Assembly: GCA_900321605.1 (NCBI GenBank)
Contig: ONWR01000019.1
Span: 1 to 33,610 of the forward strand
DNA length: 33,610 nt
Direction of reading: 5' to 3'
DNA from: an uncultured Bacteroidales bacterium
GTDB taxonomy: Bacteria; Bacteroidota; Bacteroidia; Bacteroidales; Paludibacteraceae
Positions within the stretch are counted from its first letter, which is position 1, and each line of letters starts with the position of its first letter. This document shows, in pieces, positions 1 to 32,722 of the stretch. Made by a program: the position numbers and the translations under genes. The notes under the pieces were generated by a model. It was not told the origin of the DNA. It saw nothing but the letters and a program-made list of their open reading frames with translations, and made no database searches.

Positions 1-374
1 GACCAATATTCCTCACTGCTGCCTCCCGTAGGAGTTTGGACCGTGTCTCAGTTCCAATGTGGGGGACCTTCCTCTCAGAACCCCTACTGATCGTCGACTT
101 GGTGAGCCGTTACCTCACCAACTATCTAATCAGAAGCGTGCTCACCCATAGTCCTTACGTTTCAAGTGATCGTCATGCGGCGTTCACTCACATGGAGCTT
201 TAATCCAACTTTCGCTGGGCTATTCCCCGACTATGGACAGATTGCACACCTGTTACGCACCCGTGCGCCGGTCGCCGCCAATTGAAGCAAGCTTCAACCG
301 CGCTGCCCCTCGACTTGCATGTGTTAGGCCTGTCGCTAGCGTTCATCCTGAGCCAGGATCAAACTCTTCGTTGT
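1..374 (-). rRNA. rrs: 16S ribosomal RNA, 5' portion (partial)
   Basis: Read on the minus strand, positions 367 to 348 give the near-universal 16S start AGAGTTTGATCCTGGCTCAG. The V1-V2 region follows, and then the conserved block ACTCCTACGGGAGGCAGCAG near positions 36-17. By comparison with E. coli numbering the mature 5' end should be about position 374. Only about the first 370 nucleotides are present because the window starts inside the gene. The V1-V2 sequence looks like Bacteroidales, but I cannot place it to family. A strong promoter lies about 200 bases upstream at 570-601. Confidence 0.97.
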
Positions 375-5206: not shown

Positions 5207-6184
5207 TCAGGAGAGATCGTAGCCGTAGTGCTTGAGGCGGTTGGTGTTGGAACGCCAATCCTTGTCCACTTTGACGAAGAGCTGGAGGAAAACCTGCTTT
5301 TGGAAGAAGTCCTCAATGTCCTTGCGTGCCTGCGAGCCGACGCGCTTGAGGGCAGAACCGGCTTTGCCGATGATGATGCCTTTTTGGCTGTCTCTTTCGC
5401 AATATATCACTGCAGAAATCTCGATGAGATTTCCTTTGGTCGTTGGTCGATGGTCGTTGGTCGTTAGTCCCTTTTCTTCGTGGTCGATGAAAGACTCGAC
5501 TTCGACTTCGACAGAGTACGGGATCTCTTTGTCGTAGTTCTGGAGGATCTTCTCGCGGATGATTTCGTTAACAAAGAAGCGTGCGGGCTTGTCAGTCAGT
5601 TGATCTTTGGGGAAGAAAGGAGGACCGACAGGCAATGCATCTTTGATAGCGTCAAAGAGCTGCGAAACGCCGAATTTCTCCTGTGCTGAGATAGGGAAGA
5701 TGGTTGCTTCCGGAAGTTGGTTTTTCCAGAACTCAACTAATCGTTCGAGGGTATCCTGTGTCGTGAGATCAATCTTATTTATAATAAGGAACACGCGCGA
5801 GCCTGCTGAAGACATCTTTTTTACTTTCTCGATGAAGTCAGGATTGCGGTCGATGGTGTCTTGCGGCTCGGTGACATACAAGAGAACGTCCGCGTCCACA
5901 AGGGCAGAACGGCTGAACTCAAGCATCTGACGCTGGAGTTGGTAGTTCGGCGAGAGGACACCCGGGGTGTCGGAATAGACCATCTGGAAGTCCTCGCCGT
6001 TGACGATACCCATGATACGATGGCGGGTGGTTTGCGCCTTCGACGTGATGATCGAAAGGCGTTCCCCCACCAAGGCGTTCATGAGGGTCGATTTGCCGAC
6101 GTTGGGGTTACCAACAATGTTCACAAACCCACTGCGATGGGTTTGTGAACATTGATTTGATATTTGAGAATTGAGATTTGACAT
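5207..6184 (-). CDS. era: GTPase Era, ribosome assembly factor
   Basis: The protein has 325 residues; Era is usually about 300. The GTPase domain shows G1 GNPNVGKST, G3 DTPG and G4 NKID. The C-terminal KH domain contains ERDSQKGIIIGKAGSALKRVG. Era binds the 3' end of 16S rRNA and helps mature the 30S subunit. Two tracts are odd. The first residues (SNLNSQISNQ) are encoded by a 7-base-period array at 6155-6189 that includes the start codon. Residues reading about GLTTNDHRPTTKGN are encoded by a second 7-base array (5438-5470) in the loop before the KH domain, which explains the extra length. A 17-bp inverted repeat (6115-6154) overlaps the codons just before G1. I keep the ATG at 6184 because no later in-frame start preserves the first GTPase strand. 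The gene starts 12 bases after the M16 gene's stop. Confidence 0.97.
   Translation of the reverse strand: MSNLNSQISNQCSQTHRSGFVNIVGNPNVGKSTLMNALVGERLSIITSKAQTTRHRIMGIVNGEDFQMVYSDTPGVLSPNYQLQRQMLEFSRSALVDADVLLYVTEPQDTIDRNPDFIEKVKKMSSAGSRVFLIINKIDLTTQDTLERLVEFWKNQLPEATIFPISAQEKFGVSQLFDAIKDALPVGPPFFPKDQLTDKPARFFVNEIIREKILQNYDKEIPYSVEVEVESFIDHEEKGLTTNDHRPTTKGNLIEISAVIYCERDSQKGIIIGKAGSALKRVGSQARKDIEDFFQKQVFLQLFVKVDKDWRSNTNRLKHYGYDLS
5438..5470. repeat. 7-base-period array inside era
   Basis: Plus-strand units GGTCGTT, GGTCGAT, GGTCGTT, GGTCGTT, then AGTCC (4.7 copies). On the coding strand it reads in frame as about TTNDHRPTT at a spot where Era proteins usually have a short loop before the KH domain. 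Confidence 0.85.
6115..6154. repeat. 17-bp perfect inverted repeat over the 5' end of era
   Basis: Arm one is 6115-6131 (CAATGTTCACAAACCCA) and arm two is 6138-6154, its exact reverse complement, with a 6-base spacer. On the coding strand the inner-gene arm encodes the conserved GFVNI before the G1 loop, and the other arm encodes QCSQTH near the N-terminus. In the mRNA it would form a very stable hairpin about 30 bases after the start codon. Confidence 0.95.
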
Positions 6185-17716: not shown

Positions 17717-18005
17717 TTCACTCGGAGCCTGCACGAGCTTTGGTACATACTTTCACGATCCAAACACGATATCGCGCCAAATGATACCCCAAACATTCCC
17801 AAAGGATACCCCAAGGATGCAAGCCGTTTTTTGTCAAAAATACGCTTTATACTATATATACGTAGTATATATACTTTTTGACGCTTTCTTTCCGTTTTTA
17901 AGCAAAAACAACACACCTATACGAGATATTCATTATTAATTATTAATTTTTAATTGAATTATTGAGATATTCATTATTAATTTTTAATTTTTAATTCCAA
18001 TTTTA
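17717..18005. other. Remainder of the kinase-lepA divergent spacer: palindrome and AT repeats, no gene
   Basis: Two copies of GATACCCCAA lie near 17783 and 17809. An inverted repeat with outer arms GTCAAAAA (17833-17840) and TTTTTGAC (17875-17882) encloses the inner arms TATACTA / TAGTATA. GAGATATTCATTATTAAT occurs at 17923 and again at 17964, each followed by ATTTTTAATT-type runs. I see no convincing coding sequence on either strand. Confidence 0.7.
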
Positions 18006-19851: not shown

Positions 19852-19887
19852 TAATTATTAATTTATAATTTTTAATTTTTAATTTAC
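19852..19887. repeat. AT-rich ATTTTTAATT repeat between lepA and the antiporter gene
   Basis: The spacer repeats TTATTAATT and TTTTTAA units, the same vocabulary as at 17930-17997 before lepA. It ends 3 bases before the next ATG. Confidence 0.7.
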
Positions 19888-22843: not shown

Positions 22844-22848
22844 ATAAT

Positions 22849-22890
22849 CTCAAATATCAAATTTCCAATGTCAAATTTCAAATGTCAAAT
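22849..22890. repeat. Six-unit 7-base array between ftsZ and the next gene
   Basis: Plus-strand units: CTCAAAT, ATCAAAT, TTCCAAT, GTCAAAT, TTCAAAT, GTCAAAT. This is the inverse complement of the vocabulary at 6155-6189 before era. It fills nearly the whole 52-base gap. Confidence 0.9.
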
Positions 22891-22895
22891 GATCT

Positions 22896-25471: not shown

Positions 25472-26224
25472 TTAATATCGACCTATTACTTGTCCTTTAA
25501 AACGGAGATCGAACTCTCTGTAGTTCTTGCCTTCTATAGCTTCTCCGGCATTCTCCATGAACGTCCGCATTTTCTTCAACTTACGCTCATAGCCGCTCAT
25601 AGCGCCGAGCACTAAACGCTCGTTCTGCATCTTACCATTCGCATCCTTCAGATAGAGATAGAGCATAAACGGTGATTGTACGTACAGATGATGTACACGA
25701 GCGTTCCAATACTTGTTCTCTTGAAGCCACTCCGCAAAATCCGCCAACTGCGTCACCGCCATCTGTGTGCCCACATTGCCGCTCACGATCAGAACGGTAT
25801 CTCTGACAGCCGCCCTCGCTTGCATCACACGCCGGTCGGTATCCACGAGCCATGTGTCCGTATTCGTCTGCACACGTAACATAGGCACGCGTTGGGTGAT
25901 CTGTACACGCACCTCATTGCGCGGCGTGAGGTAACACTCTGCCGTTCGAACCATCGGATGTGCTTTGATCGCACGCTCTATACGATGCAGTGAGACCAAG
26001 TTTAACTTACGCCCCAAAGGATACACGTCCTCCGCATATAGGAGCATATTCAGCTCCGACTCCGTGAGGTACATCCGCTCCGCTTTATCCTCTATCAGAT
26101 AGCGCATAGAGACGCAAGGCGCGTCAGTGGGCGTCATCCGAAAACCACTGATCACAGCCCCCACCAGAAGCAGCGCTGTCAGGCATACTCCGATGCTTTT
26201 CCATATGATTTGTGCTTTGGACAA
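25472..26224 (-). CDS. ftsQ: Cell division protein FtsQ
   Basis: The protein has 250 residues and apparently begins with TTG at 26224. No in-frame ATG occurs before residue 30, inside the mature part. A single N-terminal membrane helix (GVCLTALLLVGAVISGF) is followed by a POTRA-like segment with YPLGRKLNLVSLHRIERAIKAHPMVRTAECYLT, as in FtsQ/DivIB. The bulk is periplasmic and should link FtsB/FtsL to the divisome. Overall identity to well-studied FtsQ is low, so position between murC and ftsA carries much of the call. The TTG lies in the last unit of a 7-base array shared with the murC stop codon. Confidence 0.9.
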   Translation of the reverse strand: MSKAQIIWKSIGVCLTALLLVGAVISGFRMTPTDAPCVSMRYLIEDKAERMYLTESELNMLLYAEDVYPLGRKLNLVSLHRIERAIKAHPMVRTAECYLTPRNEVRVQITQRVPMLRVQTNTDTWLVDTDRRVMQARAAVRDTVLIVSGNVGTQMAVTQLADFAEWLQENKYWNARVHHLYVQSPFMLYLYLKDANGKMQNERLVLGAMSGYERKLKKMRTFMENAGEAIEGKNYREFDLRFKGQVIGRY

Positions 26225-26249
26225 ATTACAAATTACAAATTACAAATTG
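26222..26249. repeat. 7-base array spanning the murC stop and ftsQ start
   Basis: Plus-strand units CAAATTA, CAAATTA, CAAATTA, CAAATTG. On the minus strand these give the last murC residues (CNL), the murC TAA (26235-26233) and the ftsQ TTG (26224-26222). Confidence 0.92.
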
Positions 26250-27732: not shown

Positions 27733-27760
27733 AAAAAAAAGCACCTCATGTTAGGTGCTT
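27733..27760 (-). terminator. Terminator downstream of the L12-like membrane protein gene
   Basis: AAGCACCT (27739-27746) pairs with AGGTGCTT (27753-27760) around CATGTT. On the minus strand eight T residues follow (27740-27733, partly in the stem). It separates this gene from the murC promoter and could work in both directions. Confidence 0.85.
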
Positions 27761-27783
27761 TTGATCAATTTGGGCATTCTCCA

Positions 27784-29238
27784 TTATGCCTTTGAACCAT
27801 AATTACGCTTGAGACCGACGATGATGCTATAGATCATGATGGCGAGAGATACGAAAGCAATGAGCACTACTGCACCCACCAGCAGGAATAACTTCGCCGT
27901 CATCAGAATGGCATTGATAGCTCCATCGTTAGAGAAGCCGACACGCGCACCGGACGAATCAACCGGTCTGCTGTCAATCAAATGGATAGCGCCTCCGAGA
28001 GCGAACATACCGGCAGATAATTTGGCTGTCCAAGCATAGAACTTCTGCAAGAATGCCGACTCCGTACGGGTACGTGTGATGACATATCCCCATGAGTAGT
28101 TCGCGAAGATATAGAGCGGAATAAGCGCTAAGAAGATGATCACCCAAATCATACTCTTGAAGGCTTCTTTTTTACGGAAACTGTAATGACGCTCCGTGTC
28201 TTCCAGTGCAGCTTTCTTGGCGGCTTTCATATCCCAGCCTTGGGCTTCTTTGAGTTCCTCGGTATACTCAGCCAGCTTCTTGGTGTCTTTTTCTATCCAC
28301 TCCTGGTATTTCTTCTTAGCCTCTTTGGTAGAAGCGGTATCCATGGACAGCTTGTAATTCTCTATATGCTTGCCGTAGTTCTCCACTTCCACCTGGTAGC
28401 GCTGAATCTTGTAAGCGCGATACATCTGCGGCGATGCGAGTCTATCGCCACCGTTAGCCATGCGCTGGAGCGCAAGGTCAAGGGACAATGTATCTTTTTC
28501 GGGCCAAGCCTTAACGGTCTCTACGTTTGCTTTTGCACGCTCTTTGTCTTCTTTGTCGCTATATCCCATCCAAACGATCAAACCGATCGTGATGAGCGAA
28601 CCGAGGATGATACCCCATGAGAAATTGAAGTGACGACGAGACGACCATCCTACGATACCACGCATTTCCTTGAGCATCTTATGATACTCAATGTCTTTGA
28701 TACCCTTGGCGGCTTTCTCGGACTCATCCAACAAAGCGTCCATCTGTTGGGTTTCAGCAAGTGTCTCGGGATAGAAATTATCACCGCCTACATTCATTGC
28801 CTCAACCAGTTTGGCATAGGCTTTATCTTTCGAGCCCTTGACAGCATCTACGTCTTCCGGCGTGAAGGCATATTCACCCATCGAGTGCTTAGCGTCAGAG
28901 TCCGGTCCTTTCTTTTTCTTACCGTTCTCGTCCACTTCGGGTTGCTCGTCCTTTGCCAGCGCATCTTCGCCGGAAGTAAGCAACTTAGCACTACCGCCTG
29001 CCTCATTGATAGCTTTCACTACCATCTTGGCATTCAGATAGTTACCACCACGTACAGTCTTCGGGAGGCTTCCTGCTAAATCTTCCGCTTCTGTAAGCGA
29101 AATCTCTAACTGGGTTTTGAGGACTTGTTTGATGCCGTCTGCGTTCTCGCCGGCACTCTCGATGAGGATGAAATATTTCTTTTTCCACAAGAAATACCAT
29201 CCGCATACAAACAAAGCAATGAGAAGAATGATAAACAT
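27784..29238 (-). CDS. Multi-pass membrane protein with an N-terminal ribosomal-L7/L12-C-terminal-like domain
   Basis: The protein has 484 residues. Residues 1-18 are a membrane helix (FIILLIALFVCGWYFLW). Residues about 22-87 resemble the L7/L12 C-terminal domain: FILIESAGENADGIKQVLK, then SLTEAEDLAGSLP where L12 has lgLkEAkdLVesaP, then AKMVVKAINEAGGSAKLL where L12 has AeelkkaLeeaGAkVel. A charged linker (KKKKG at 107-111) and a soluble region to about 200 follow. Next come a helix at about 206-226, a long Lys/Glu-rich probable coiled coil (228-350), and two to three more helices (362-384, 403-421, 441-476). The gene is monocistronic, with a possible -7 box at 29318-29325 and a strong terminator. 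The function is unknown; membrane protein-protein contact by the L12-like part is an inference. Confidence 0.85.
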   Translation of the reverse strand: MFIILLIALFVCGWYFLWKKKYFILIESAGENADGIKQVLKTQLEISLTEAEDLAGSLPKTVRGGNYLNAKMVVKAINEAGGSAKLLTSGEDALAKDEQPEVDENGKKKKGPDSDAKHSMGEYAFTPEDVDAVKGSKDKAYAKLVEAMNVGGDNFYPETLAETQQMDALLDESEKAAKGIKDIEYHKMLKEMRGIVGWSSRRHFNFSWGIILGSLITIGLIVWMGYSDKEDKERAKANVETVKAWPEKDTLSLDLALQRMANGGDRLASPQMYRAYKIQRYQVEVENYGKHIENYKLSMDTASTKEAKKKYQEWIEKDTKKLAEYTEELKEAQGWDMKAAKKAALEDTERHYSFRKKEAFKSMIWVIIFLALIPLYIFANYSWGYVITRTRTESAFLQKFYAWTAKLSAGMFALGGAIHLIDSRPVDSSGARVGFSNDGAINAILMTAKLFLLVGAVVLIAFVSLAIMIYSIIVGLKRNYGSKA

Positions 29239-29718: not shown

Positions 29719-30480
29719 TTACAGACTCTCGGCAAAAATCTCTGCCTCTTCTATCTGATCAATCTTACCGACATCCATCATCCGGTAGTCGTTCGGCACA
29801 AACGCTTTCAGTTCCGCTTTCTCACAAATAGACAAATAGAAATCAATGAGGGAGAATTTATCCTCTTTCATGGTGTCTAACATTGCTAACACATCGGGAC
29901 TGAGGATCTGCATTCCGCTAAATGCCAATAACTGCGTATTCTCCTTTGTCCATGTGCCATTATTCGGTCTCACCTCACCCGTCTTTATATTCGTCCATCC
30001 GCAAAGCCTATCTTTCTCATCGAAACACAGGTAGCGTTGCGTCTCCCTTTTGGAAACCACCAATTGGCTGACACCTGTACGCTCATAAGCGCTTATCAAT
30101 GCGCGCAAATCGATATTCGACAAGATATCCACATTGCACGCAAGAATCGGTCCATTGTCCATTGTCCATTGTCCATTGTCCATTAAAAGCCGAAAGGCTT
30201 TTTTGAGTCCTCCCCCGGTATCGAGCAACATCTCCCGTTCATCGGAAACTGCGATATTACAGTTCCACCCTTGGTTTGCACGGATGGTATCGATGATCAT
30301 ATCGGGGAAATGATGCACATTCACGATGATATCGGTGATTCCGGCGTCACGCAGTTTCTCTACCTGCCACTGGAGCAGCTGTTTACCTGCTAACGGCACA
30401 AGCGCCTTGGGCATCCTATCGGTGAGCGGTTTAAGGCGCGTGCCCAAACCGGCGGCAAAAATCATCGCTTTCATTCTCAT
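29719..30480 (-). CDS. MurU-like sugar-1-phosphate nucleotidyltransferase
   Basis: The protein has 253 residues from ATG at 30480, whose ATGA overlaps the stop of the RapZ-like gene; a second ATG 6 bases on is possible. The N-terminus AMIFAAGLGTRLKPLTDRMPKAL is the nucleotide-binding loop of NTP-transferases, and ACNVDILSNID is the metal site (normally vNgDil). LLDTGGGLKKA matches the family. In Pseudomonas, MurU converts MurNAc-1-phosphate to UDP-MurNAc, and the kinase AmgK makes its substrate. The kinase-like gene two steps upstream makes this role likely here. A 7-base array (30151-30184) encodes the in-frame stretch MDNGQWTMDNG just before the metal site. Confidence 0.88.
   Translation of the reverse strand: MRMKAMIFAAGLGTRLKPLTDRMPKALVPLAGKQLLQWQVEKLRDAGITDIIVNVHHFPDMIIDTIRANQGWNCNIAVSDEREMLLDTGGGLKKAFRLLMDNGQWTMDNGPILACNVDILSNIDLRALISAYERTGVSQLVVSKRETQRYLCFDEKDRLCGWTNIKTGEVRPNNGTWTKENTQLLAFSGMQILSPDVLAMLDTMKEDKFSLIDFYLSICEKAELKAFVPNDYRMMDVGKIDQIEEAEIFAESL
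30151..30184. repeat. 7-base array inside the MurU-like gene
   Basis: Plus-strand unit TCCATTG repeats four times plus six bases. It reads in frame on the minus strand as about MDNGQWTMDNG, a segment longer than the short loop usually present there in nucleotidyltransferases. Confidence 0.9.
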
Positions 30481-31755: not shown

Positions 31756-31763
31756 AATAATCA

Positions 31764-31798
31764 CCTTTTATCTTTTATCTTTCATCTTTCACCTTTCA
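31764..31798. repeat. Five-unit 7-base array filling the gap between two genes
   Basis: Plus-strand units CCTTTTA, TCTTTTA, TCTTTCA, TCTTTCA, CCTTTCA. The array starts exactly after the lipid kinase stop (31799) and ends 8 bases before the ATG at 31755. On the coding strand it is purine-rich (GAAAGAT), and its last unit supplies AAAGGTGA. Confidence 0.92.
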
Positions 31799-32722
31799 TT
31801 AGCATCTAAACTGCAATGCGTTGTGGATGCAGCTTATTGTACATGGACCGATGATGTTTTCCAAAATACCATCCGCCTCAAAGAGAAGATGCTTGTCATA
31901 GGCTATCTCTATCTCTTTGCCCACAATAGGATAAACGAACGGCAGTTCGGTCAATCGACCATTGAAGAGGTTTGGCAAGGCCTTGAGAACTTGTCCGAAA
32001 GTCGGCTTGCGAACAAACATCGCGTGAAAGACACCATCCGTCGGATCTGCTTGAGGATTTTGACGAATACCTCCTCCCGAGAACGGCCCGTTGCCGATAT
32101 TCATCGTAAAAAGCAGATCATTCACCGCCTCTTTGCCATCCACCGTAAGAACCATATGCTGCGACTGATGCTCCATAATGGCATCGATAAGTCCCATCAC
32201 ATAGTTCACACGATGGGAACCGATATAGCGCTTGATCGTCTCTGCCTTCTTGCAACAAAGCGAATCCACTCCAAAACCGACCGAATTGATAAAATAACGG
32301 TGATGTTCAATGCCGTTACGCCAATAGGTAACGCAGCCGATATCTATCGGACACCCCGTTCCCTCAAAGAACCGAGACAGAGACTCTTGATGGTTCTTGG
32401 TAAGCGACCAATACCGGCTCCAGTCATTTCCTGTGCCGCGCGGCATCAGACCTATCTGTATCCGCGCACGTTGCGATACCGTCAGCTCCGACCGCATGAT
32501 GCCGTTCACTGTTTCGGACAGCGTTCCGTCTCCGCCTAAAACAAGTATCTCATCGTATCCCTTTTCCACTAACTCACGTGCCAATTCGATAGCATGACCG
32601 GCATATTGGGTCACGCGATAAGCAAACGGCTGATGACGCTTCCGAAGAAGTTTCCACAAGTACATCCGCTGTGCTCGATAAAAACGCTTGCCGGATTTGG
32701 GATTGATGATGATGCCAAGCAT
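31799..32722 (-). CDS. Diacylglycerol/sphingosine kinase-like lipid kinase (DAGK_cat family)
   Basis: The protein has 307 residues from the ATG at 32722 (MLGIIINPKSGK). An upstream in-frame ATG would start in the ribosomal-operon terminator and is rejected. The nucleotide motif VLGGDGTLSETVNG and the following GLMPRGTGNDWSR are signatures of the DgkB/YegS/LCB5 family. It phosphorylates a lipid alcohol such as diacylglycerol with ATP at the inner membrane; the exact lipid is unknown. No promoter is visible between the ribosomal terminator and the start, so it may depend on read-through. The AmgK-like gene follows after the 35-base array. Confidence 0.92.
   Translation of the reverse strand: MLGIIINPKSGKRFYRAQRMYLWKLLRKRHQPFAYRVTQYAGHAIELARELVEKGYDEILVLGGDGTLSETVNGIMRSELTVSQRARIQIGLMPRGTGNDWSRYWSLTKNHQESLSRFFEGTGCPIDIGCVTYWRNGIEHHRYFINSVGFGVDSLCCKKAETIKRYIGSHRVNYVMGLIDAIMEHQSQHMVLTVDGKEAVNDLLFTMNIGNGPFSGGGIRQNPQADPTDGVFHAMFVRKPTFGQVLKALPNLFNGRLTELPFVYPIVGKEIEIAYDKHLLFEADGILENIIGPCTISCIHNALQFRC

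What the first reader, a model, noticed from the sequence alone, without database searches (positions are those of the whole stretch)
27784..29238. Membrane-anchored protein with a ribosomal L7/L12-like domain
Seen: after a membrane helix, residues about 22-87 follow the order of the L7/L12 C-terminal domain, with SLTEAEDLAGSLP and KAINEAGGSAKLL at the expected spacing. Known: that domain recruits translation factors on the ribosome. Inferred: here it is fused to a coiled coil and several further helices, so it may recruit a factor to the membrane. The gene stands alone between two terminators and beside tRNA-Lys. I know of no described system with this full architecture.
Basis: partly seen in the sequence, partly recalled or inferred. 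Interest (0 to 1): 0.7.

Follow-up and report, generated by a model that had tools for sequence, protein, structure and literature searches.

The report
Membrane protein with repurposed ribosomal-stalk domain
A bacterium of the Bacteroidales has a membrane protein that carries a copy of the ribosome's L12 domain, fused from two genes that relatives keep apart beside a flotillin-like gene; one loop, probably facing outward, looks swapped between near relatives, which suggests a membrane recognition or stress device and not a ribosome part.

Summary
The ORF and its L12-like stretch are real. Alone it scores weakly (Pfam E=0.3 whole protein, 0.0066 domain), but a profile of 11 family members finds, besides the gene itself, only ribosomal L12 in the window's genome (E=1.6e-6); profile-profile P=7e-7.

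The protein fuses two genes. Of 178 genus genomes, 11 hold both halves: separate neighbours in 8, one cluster in 1, fused in 2 (window and its nearest relative). In 7 the pair lies in a cluster with an SPFH+GYF_2 gene and a Zn-ribbon/TPR membrane protein gene; neither was found in the window's genome.

Lysines that ribosomal L12 keeps (K65, K70, K84) are lost here, so translation-factor recruitment is unlikely for this domain. Other L12 domains in such SPFH clusters mostly keep them.

New: the loop between helices 2 and 3, probably extracytoplasmic, is 50% identical to the nearest relative with near-saturated synonymous change, while its flanks are 99-100% identical: probable exchange of the loop by recombination. 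No structure model was obtained (21 busy replies). Best reading: a membrane adaptor/receptor derived from an SPFH operon.

The parts
27784..29238 (-). Fused gene, 484 aa: membrane-anchored L12-like domain + linker + multi-helix membrane protein with a large loop
   Evidence: 84% identical full-length relative L002; the halves are separate genes in relatives
29185..29238 (-). Membrane helix 1 (res 1-18), followed by KKK, so the next domain is predicted cytoplasmic
   Evidence: hydropathy
28978..29184 (-). L7/L12 CTD-like domain (res 19-87)
   Evidence: 2 nonsynonymous against 10 synonymous differences from L002 over res 19-90
28624..28977 (-). Linker and conserved, predicted cytoplasmic part of the second half (res 88-205); res 91-205 100% identical to L002
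28567..28623 (-). Membrane helix 2 (res 206-224)
28153..28584 (-). Variable loop (res 219-362), charged, perhaps coiled (by eye); predicted extracytoplasmic; 50% identity to L002 against 99-100% in the flanks
27787..28143 (-). C-terminal membrane part (res 366-484): strong segment 360-378 at its start, possible weak one about 404-422 (by eye), strong one 451-469
   Evidence: 404-422 did not pass the script's threshold
27737..27762 (-). Terminator-like hairpin with T-run just after the stop codon
   Evidence: consensus scan; number found is near chance

Best explanation
The gene encodes a membrane receptor/adaptor that came out of an SPFH (flotillin-like) operon. Shown by sequence: a membrane-anchored L12-like protein and a multi-helix membrane protein, separate genes in most relatives that have both, are one polypeptide in the window and its nearest relative; the SPFH and Zn-ribbon/TPR partners are not found in the window's genome; the loop between helices 2 and 3 is fast-evolving and mosaic. 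Inferred: the two halves act as one complex (fusion of neighbours); the L12-like domain lies in the cytoplasm and serves as a small protein-binding or self-associating module whose ribosomal contact surface has been replaced; the loop faces the periplasm and contacts a variable partner (envelope component, phage, toxin or neighbour cell); binding there is passed to the cytoplasmic side, as YdjG/H anchor YdjI and PspA to the membrane in B. subtilis, but here without PspA.
For: L12 homology. Split neighbours in 8 genomes, same cluster in 1, fused in 2, of 11 with both halves among 178 genus genomes (layout). Cluster with a Band_7_1 + GYF_2 protein and a Zn-ribbon/TPR protein. The SPFH+GYF_2 query rings in 53 of 178 genus genomes (some only over its GYF_2 end), but not in the window's, G285, G208 or G335; no Zn-ribbon/TPR match in the own genome. 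Pair kept without an SPFH match in G208 and G335, so it may work alone. K65/K70/K84 lost with G62/L80/A83/P91 kept. Loop 50% identical, pS 0.84; flanks pS 0.01-0.07; five neighbouring genes pS 0.12-0.17. Synonymous exceeds nonsynonymous change in the L12 part and the cytoplasmic part. Analogy: PMC8581546 (abstract, outline and passages).
Against: No structure model and no functional data on any member. The side of the loop is not firm: positive residues also stand on the loop side of helix 3. PspA matches none of 18 genomes checked, so the YdjGHI comparison covers layout only. The window's genome is 95% complete and G208 83%, so a missing SPFH gene could be an assembly gap, though it is also unfound in G285 and G335. 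Assembly error at the loop borders is not excluded: no reads at hand. In the C-terminal part (res 366-484) too few differences exist to show purifying selection (pN and pS both 0.011).
Confidence: 0.45

Rival explanations
1. Translation-factor trap: the L12 domain binds EF-Tu, EF-G, IF2 or RF3 and holds it at the membrane.
For: True relationship to L12. Four L12 domains in proteins of SPFH clusters of G278, G237 and G210 keep K84 in 4 of 4 and K65 and K70 in 3 of 4. Position 73 is Lys in 11 of 11 members, as in the RplL of G101.
Against: In the membrane-anchored family K65, K70 and K84 are Lys in only 1 of 11 each; position 69 is K, E or Q in 10 of 11 and position 66 is polar or charged in 6 of 11; the window has A, D, K, Q, E at 65, 66, 69, 70, 84. 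K65A lowers poly(Phe) synthesis in E. coli (PMC6110070 passages). That 66, 69, 70, 73 and 84 are contact positions is recalled, from no call.
Confidence: 0.12
2. Polymorphic recognition module (phage or toxin exclusion, kin discrimination): the loop is the specificity part and changes by recombination.
For: Mosaic loop in window/L002; in G158/G225 one flank is near-identical (40 codons, pS 0.04) and the loop near saturation (0.84), the other flank 0.64; mean identity 0.28 in the loop against 0.47 in flanks over 171 pairs; the loop of the Zn-ribbon partner is the most variable of its three regions compared (0.26 against 0.52 and 0.45); in G335 the pair lies beside a type II R-M system.
Against: No PADLOC match for the seven window or SPFH-cluster proteins tested; no phage, plasmid or viral-contig copy; no second loop copy in the window's genome or G285; tree conflict for L050/L055 not significant (p-AU 0.074); in the Zn-ribbon partner of L058/L060 a stretch before its first helix varies too.
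Confidence: 0.2
3. ClpS-like adaptor: the L12/ClpS fold delivers substrates at the membrane to a protease.
For: L12 and ClpS are named as one domain by Kaur et al. 2020 (PMC7159879 passage).
Against: No ClpS family among Pfam matches up to E=10. No protease gene caught the eye in the clusters; none was searched for.
Confidence: 0.05
4. Leftover of a decaying operon, no longer functional in the window lineage.
For: SPFH and Zn-ribbon/TPR genes not found; G231 shows only a C-terminal fragment and G272 a short form.
Against: Intact ORF in two genomes; cytoplasmic part (91-205) 100% and L12 part 97% identical, synonymous change exceeding nonsynonymous.
Confidence: 0.1

Closest known systems
Ribosomal protein bL12 C-terminal domain (PF00542)
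   Same: Aligns over 67 columns; the family profile finds RplL in whole genomes
   Different: Membrane segment in place of the bL12 N-terminal part; K65/K70/K84 lost; below Pfam's cut-off
L12/ClpS domain insertions in Bacteroidetes vWA-MoxR beta-propeller conflict systems (PMC7159879, passages)
   Same: L12 CTD reused as an accessory domain in Bacteroidetes; loci that seem of this kind (MoxR-like gene two genes away, by eye) in G631, G627, G544
   Different: Different partners (SPFH/GYF_2, Zn-ribbon/TPR); small membrane-anchored form; no MoxR or vWA gene recognised by eye in the SPFH clusters
B. subtilis pspA-ydjGHI (PMC8581546; also named in PMC11237479, passages)
   Same: SPFH protein plus integral membrane proteins encoded together
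   Different: No PspA match in 18 of 18 genomes; L12-like protein in addition; SPFH protein ends in GYF_2
SPFH cluster of G278/G175 (L063, L136)
   Same: SPFH gene next to a membrane gene and an L12-domain protein
   Different: L12 domains at the end of an 881- or 763-aa coiled-coil-like protein, scoring well with L12 models; no multi-helix half seen there

Membership tests
PF00542 Ribosomal_L12 domain | Score above Pfam cut-off 25.9 bits | tested here: not met
   11.9 bits whole protein, 17.2 domain alone; homologue L014 reaches 27.6
PF00542 Ribosomal_L12 domain | Detectable homology to bL12 CTD over its length | tested here: met
   hhalign P=7.3e-7, 67 columns; RplL E=1.6e-6 in own genome
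PF00542 Ribosomal_L12 domain | L12 alpha/beta fold | not tested
   Structure prediction answered busy 21 times
bL12 ribosomal protein | Ribosomal gene context and bL12 N-terminal domain | tested here: not met
   The window gene lies beside murC and tRNA-Lys (murC named by eye) and starts with a membrane segment; the genome has its own RplL
bL12 ribosomal protein | K65, K70, K84 | tested here: not met
   A, Q, E in the window; 18 of 18 RplL keep all three
YdjGHI-PspA system | SPFH protein in the genome | tested here: not met
   Not found in G000; in the cluster in 7 of the 11 genomes with both halves
YdjGHI-PspA system | PspA/IM30 | tested here: not met
   0 of 18 genomes; control rings in 9 of 14
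vWA-MoxR L12 systems | MoxR and vWA genes next to the L12 protein | tested here: not met
   Window neighbours read by eye as murC, ftsQ, ftsA on one side, tRNA-Lys and a nucleotidyltransferase on the other
ClpS | ClpS family match | tested here: not met
   No ClpS among Pfam matches to E=10

The most novel reading that the evidence does not exclude
A membrane recognition system in which an extracytoplasmic domain, swapped between strains by recombination, controls a cytoplasmic L12-fold arm; in clusters whose L12 domains keep the lysines of ribosomal L12, that arm captures translational GTPases at an SPFH platform, so that an event at the envelope throttles translation. In the window the arm has been re-tuned to another partner and fused to the receptor.
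Probability: 0.07. Interest if true: 0.85.

Novelty: new variant of a known kind. Interest (0 to 1): 0.5.

Why it matters
Reuse of the ribosomal stalk domain outside the ribosome is on record as insertions in predicted conflict proteins. Here it is a small membrane-anchored protein that recurs with flotillin-like gene clusters, has lost the ribosomal contact lysines in one branch and mostly kept them in others. That gives a natural comparison of what the domain binds when it leaves the ribosome. The mosaic loop suggests that something outside the membrane selects for variety, in a kind of cluster otherwise linked to envelope stress.

Tried and rejected
Eukaryotic Pfam and PDB hits (Huntingtin, EMC3/TMCO1, Fam-L/Fam-M-like) are below their cut-offs or weak, and were not followed. 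Phage, plasmid or viral-contig origin: no match. Second loop copies: none in the window's genome or G285. Known defence system: no PADLOC hit for seven proteins tested. PspA partnership: no PspA match. G214 first looked like a third fusion because of the tool's open-frame length; the DNA shows stops between the halves. A loop exchange between L050 and L055 was suspected and not supported (p-AU 0.074). Spread of the multi-helix profile beyond the family: 2 of 295 class genomes, one the window's own and the other marginal, E=5.6e-4. The SHOCT-domain paper (PMC3581485, passages) pairs SHOCT with Band 7 but does not mention L12.

Full report
WHAT IS THERE. The ORF at 27784-29238 on the minus strand (484 aa) is intact. 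Hydropathy gives membrane segments at 1-19, 206-224, 360-378 and 451-469; a weaker one near 404-422 is my reading by eye and did not pass the script's threshold. Residues 19-87 line up with the C-terminal domain of ribosomal protein bL12. A terminator-like hairpin follows the stop codon (27737-27762), but such sites are no more frequent here than chance (3 found, 2.8 expected), and none was found upstream of the gene. tRNA-Lys lies 339 bases upstream on the other strand.

IS THE L12 LIKENESS REAL? On one sequence the signal is weak: Pfam E=0.3 whole protein, 0.0066 for the domain, seven bL12 sequences of the PDB at E 0.037-0.26, with Huntingtin at 0.023 as an unrelated hit. With relatives it is firm. 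An HMM of 18 RplL C-terminal domains gives the window domain 21.4 bits, above all 1000 shuffles (max 12.5). hhalign of 11 members (window included, 10 used) against 10 RplL gives P=7.3e-7 over 67 columns. As a whole-genome query in 250 genomes of the taxonomic family, the 11-row profile rings in 214. In G254, G214, G335, G101 and the window's genome the top match is the membrane-anchored gene (E below 1e-29). I checked that it is RplL in the window's genome (E=1.6e-6; the same place as the PF00542 match) and in G101 (beside an rplJ-like gene), not one by one elsewhere. Against: 7 of 11 members score poorly alone with the RplL HMM (7, 8, 15, 19, 7, 32 and 331 of 1000 shuffles as good), so the family has drifted far.

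A FUSION OF TWO NEIGHBOURS. Of 178 genomes of the genus, 21 match the protein. Seven show only the multi-helix half (G158, G197, G225, G253, G262, G277, G306). G231 has a C-terminal fragment, G272 a short form, and G278 matches by an L12 domain in an 881-aa protein. In a family-wide sample 9 of 200 genomes matched, own included; four of them, in other genera, weakly and only over the multi-helix half. A profile of 19 multi-helix proteins finds 2 of 295 genomes class-wide, one of them the window's own and the other marginal, so this half is nearly confined to one family; L003's record is titled Paludibacteraceae.

THE CLUSTER IN RELATIVES. In G101, G210, G214, G230, G237, G254 and G255 the two genes lie on one strand with an SPFH gene (PF13421 Band_7_1 plus PF14237 GYF_2, scanned on the G237 protein only), a small membrane protein and a ~640-aa protein with N-terminal Cys pairs (read as a Zn ribbon by eye), TPR matches below Pfam's cut-offs and two membrane segments. 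That these clusters are operons is inferred from order and strand. In G158, G197, G253, G262, G277 and G306 the cluster shows no L12-like gene at phmmer E 0.001. The SPFH+GYF_2 query rings in 53 of 178 genus genomes, some only over the GYF_2 end, but not in the window's genome, G285, G208 or G335; the Zn-ribbon/TPR query finds nothing in the window's genome (not run on the other three). So the pair appears alone in four genomes, of which G208 is only 83% complete. PspA, the partner in B. subtilis (PMC8581546, abstract, outline and passages), matches 0 of 18 carriers while the control rings in 9 of 14 genomes.

MORE L12 DOMAINS IN SPFH CLUSTERS. In G237 and G210 a further protein of the cluster carries a clear L12 domain (PF00542 E=1e-11 and 4e-10); its counterparts in G255 and G230 show none by reading and by phmmer. 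In G278 and G175 a second kind of SPFH cluster encodes a long coiled-coil-like protein with two and one L12 domains (G278: PF00542 E=3e-29; G175: RplL-HMM E=4e-19). In a phylum-wide sample, 9 of 296 genomes had more than one PF00542 match at E 0.001, a threshold that the window's own domain does not reach; several of the nine are partial or weak, and three (G544, G627, G631) lie two genes from a MoxR-like gene, named by eye, which fits the insertions that Kaur et al. 2020 report for Bacteroidetes vWA-MoxR systems (PMC7159879, passages). One cyanobacterial orthocaspase with a Ribosomal_L12 domain is on record (PMC8283722, passages).

DOES IT BIND TRANSLATION FACTORS? Positions G62, L80, A83 and P91 (E. 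coli numbers) are kept in 10, 11, 11 and 11 of 11 members. K65, K70 and K84 are Lys in 18 of 18 RplL, but in 1 of 11 members each; the window has A, Q, E. In E. coli, K65A lowers poly(Phe) synthesis; Arg, and less well His, can replace Lys (PMC6110070, passages). That 66, 69, 70, 73 and 84 belong to the contact surface is recalled. The four L12 domains of G278, G237 and G210 examined keep K84 in 4 and K65 and K70 in 3; the G175 domain was not examined. So factor capture is unlikely for the window protein and open for those.

THE LOOP. Between the window and L002, residues 104-205 and 366-484 are 100% and 99% identical with pS 0.065 and 0.011, while residues 219-362 are 50% identical with pN 0.34 and pS 0.84; five neighbouring genes have pS 0.12-0.17. 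In 15-codon steps, nucleotide identity is 0.96-1.00 over codons 91-210, 0.82 at 211-225, 0.40-0.71 over 226-360, 0.89 at 361-375 and 0.96-1.00 after that, so the borders lie close to helices 2 and 3. Selection on protein sequence alone would not saturate synonymous sites, so exchange or import of the loop by recombination is the simplest reading. A second case is G158/G225: one flank pS 0.04 (40 codons), loop 0.84, other flank 0.64. Over 171 pairs mean identity is 0.47 in flanks and 0.28 in the loop. The loop tree still joins window and L002 (100/99) but with 1.03 changes per site against 0.005 for the flanks. A suspected exchange between L050 and L055 was not significant (p-AU 0.074). There is no second loop copy in either genome. 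The loop of the Zn-ribbon partner is likewise the most variable of its three regions compared (0.26 against 0.52 and 0.45, 78 pairs), although in L058/L060 a stretch before its first helix varies as well. Caveats: draft assemblies without reads at hand, and the side of the loop is inferred; positive residues stand on the loop side of helix 3 as well.

MECHANISM. Shown: homology, fusion, gene context, loss of key residues, mosaic loop. Inferred: cytoplasmic L12-like arm as a protein-binding or self-associating module, extracytoplasmic variable contact domain, and signal passing between them. I put 0.45 on this adaptor/receptor reading, 0.2 on a polymorphic recognition device as its specific purpose, 0.12 on translation-factor capture.

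NOVELTY. Searches of open-licence papers for L12 with SPFH, Band 7, GYF_2, zinc ribbon, DUF4339 or domain architecture showed no such cluster or protein; listings were capped (8 of 4,794 seen) and subscription papers are mostly not held. Both ingredients, L12 as an accessory domain and SPFH membrane operons, are known; their combination, the fusion and the swapped loop are a new variant.

Noticed in passing
window 17927-17996, 19852-19885, 22846-22891, 26221-26248, 31761-31799; also 5436-5469: Short tandem repeats of period 7 with different units, in or at the edges of gaps between genes (5436-5469 lies inside an Era-like GTPase ORF, named by eye).
   Followed up: no
window 30150-30184: Five perfect 7-base repeats (GTCCATT) inside the nucleotidyltransferase ORF; L002 has a different short sequence at that place.
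   Followed up: no
window 1-374: 5' part of a 16S rRNA gene on the minus strand at the end of the window, which is the end of its contig.
   Followed up: no
L136 3191-10433; L063: Second kind of SPFH cluster in G175 and G278: SPFH, membrane protein, long protein ending in L12 domain(s), two further proteins, bactofilin-like protein (named by eye).
   Followed up: partly
L056 9438-11824: In G335 the split pair lies directly beside a type II restriction-modification system.
   Followed up: partly
L140 3098-10750: In G221 an SPFH locus with a TerB-like gene (named by eye) sits among neighbours like those that flank the window gene (nucleotidyltransferase, kinase genes); possibly a favoured site.
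   Followed up: no
L137 7142-7522: G313 seems to have two RplL-size L12 genes on different contigs; assembly mixture not excluded.
   Followed up: no
L052 2571-4553: Upstream of several SPFH clusters: a protein with a C-terminal sigma-r4-like HTH (Pfam E=5e-4, below cut-off; TPR-like and membrane parts read by eye) and a ~105-aa protein sharing that end.
   Followed up: partly
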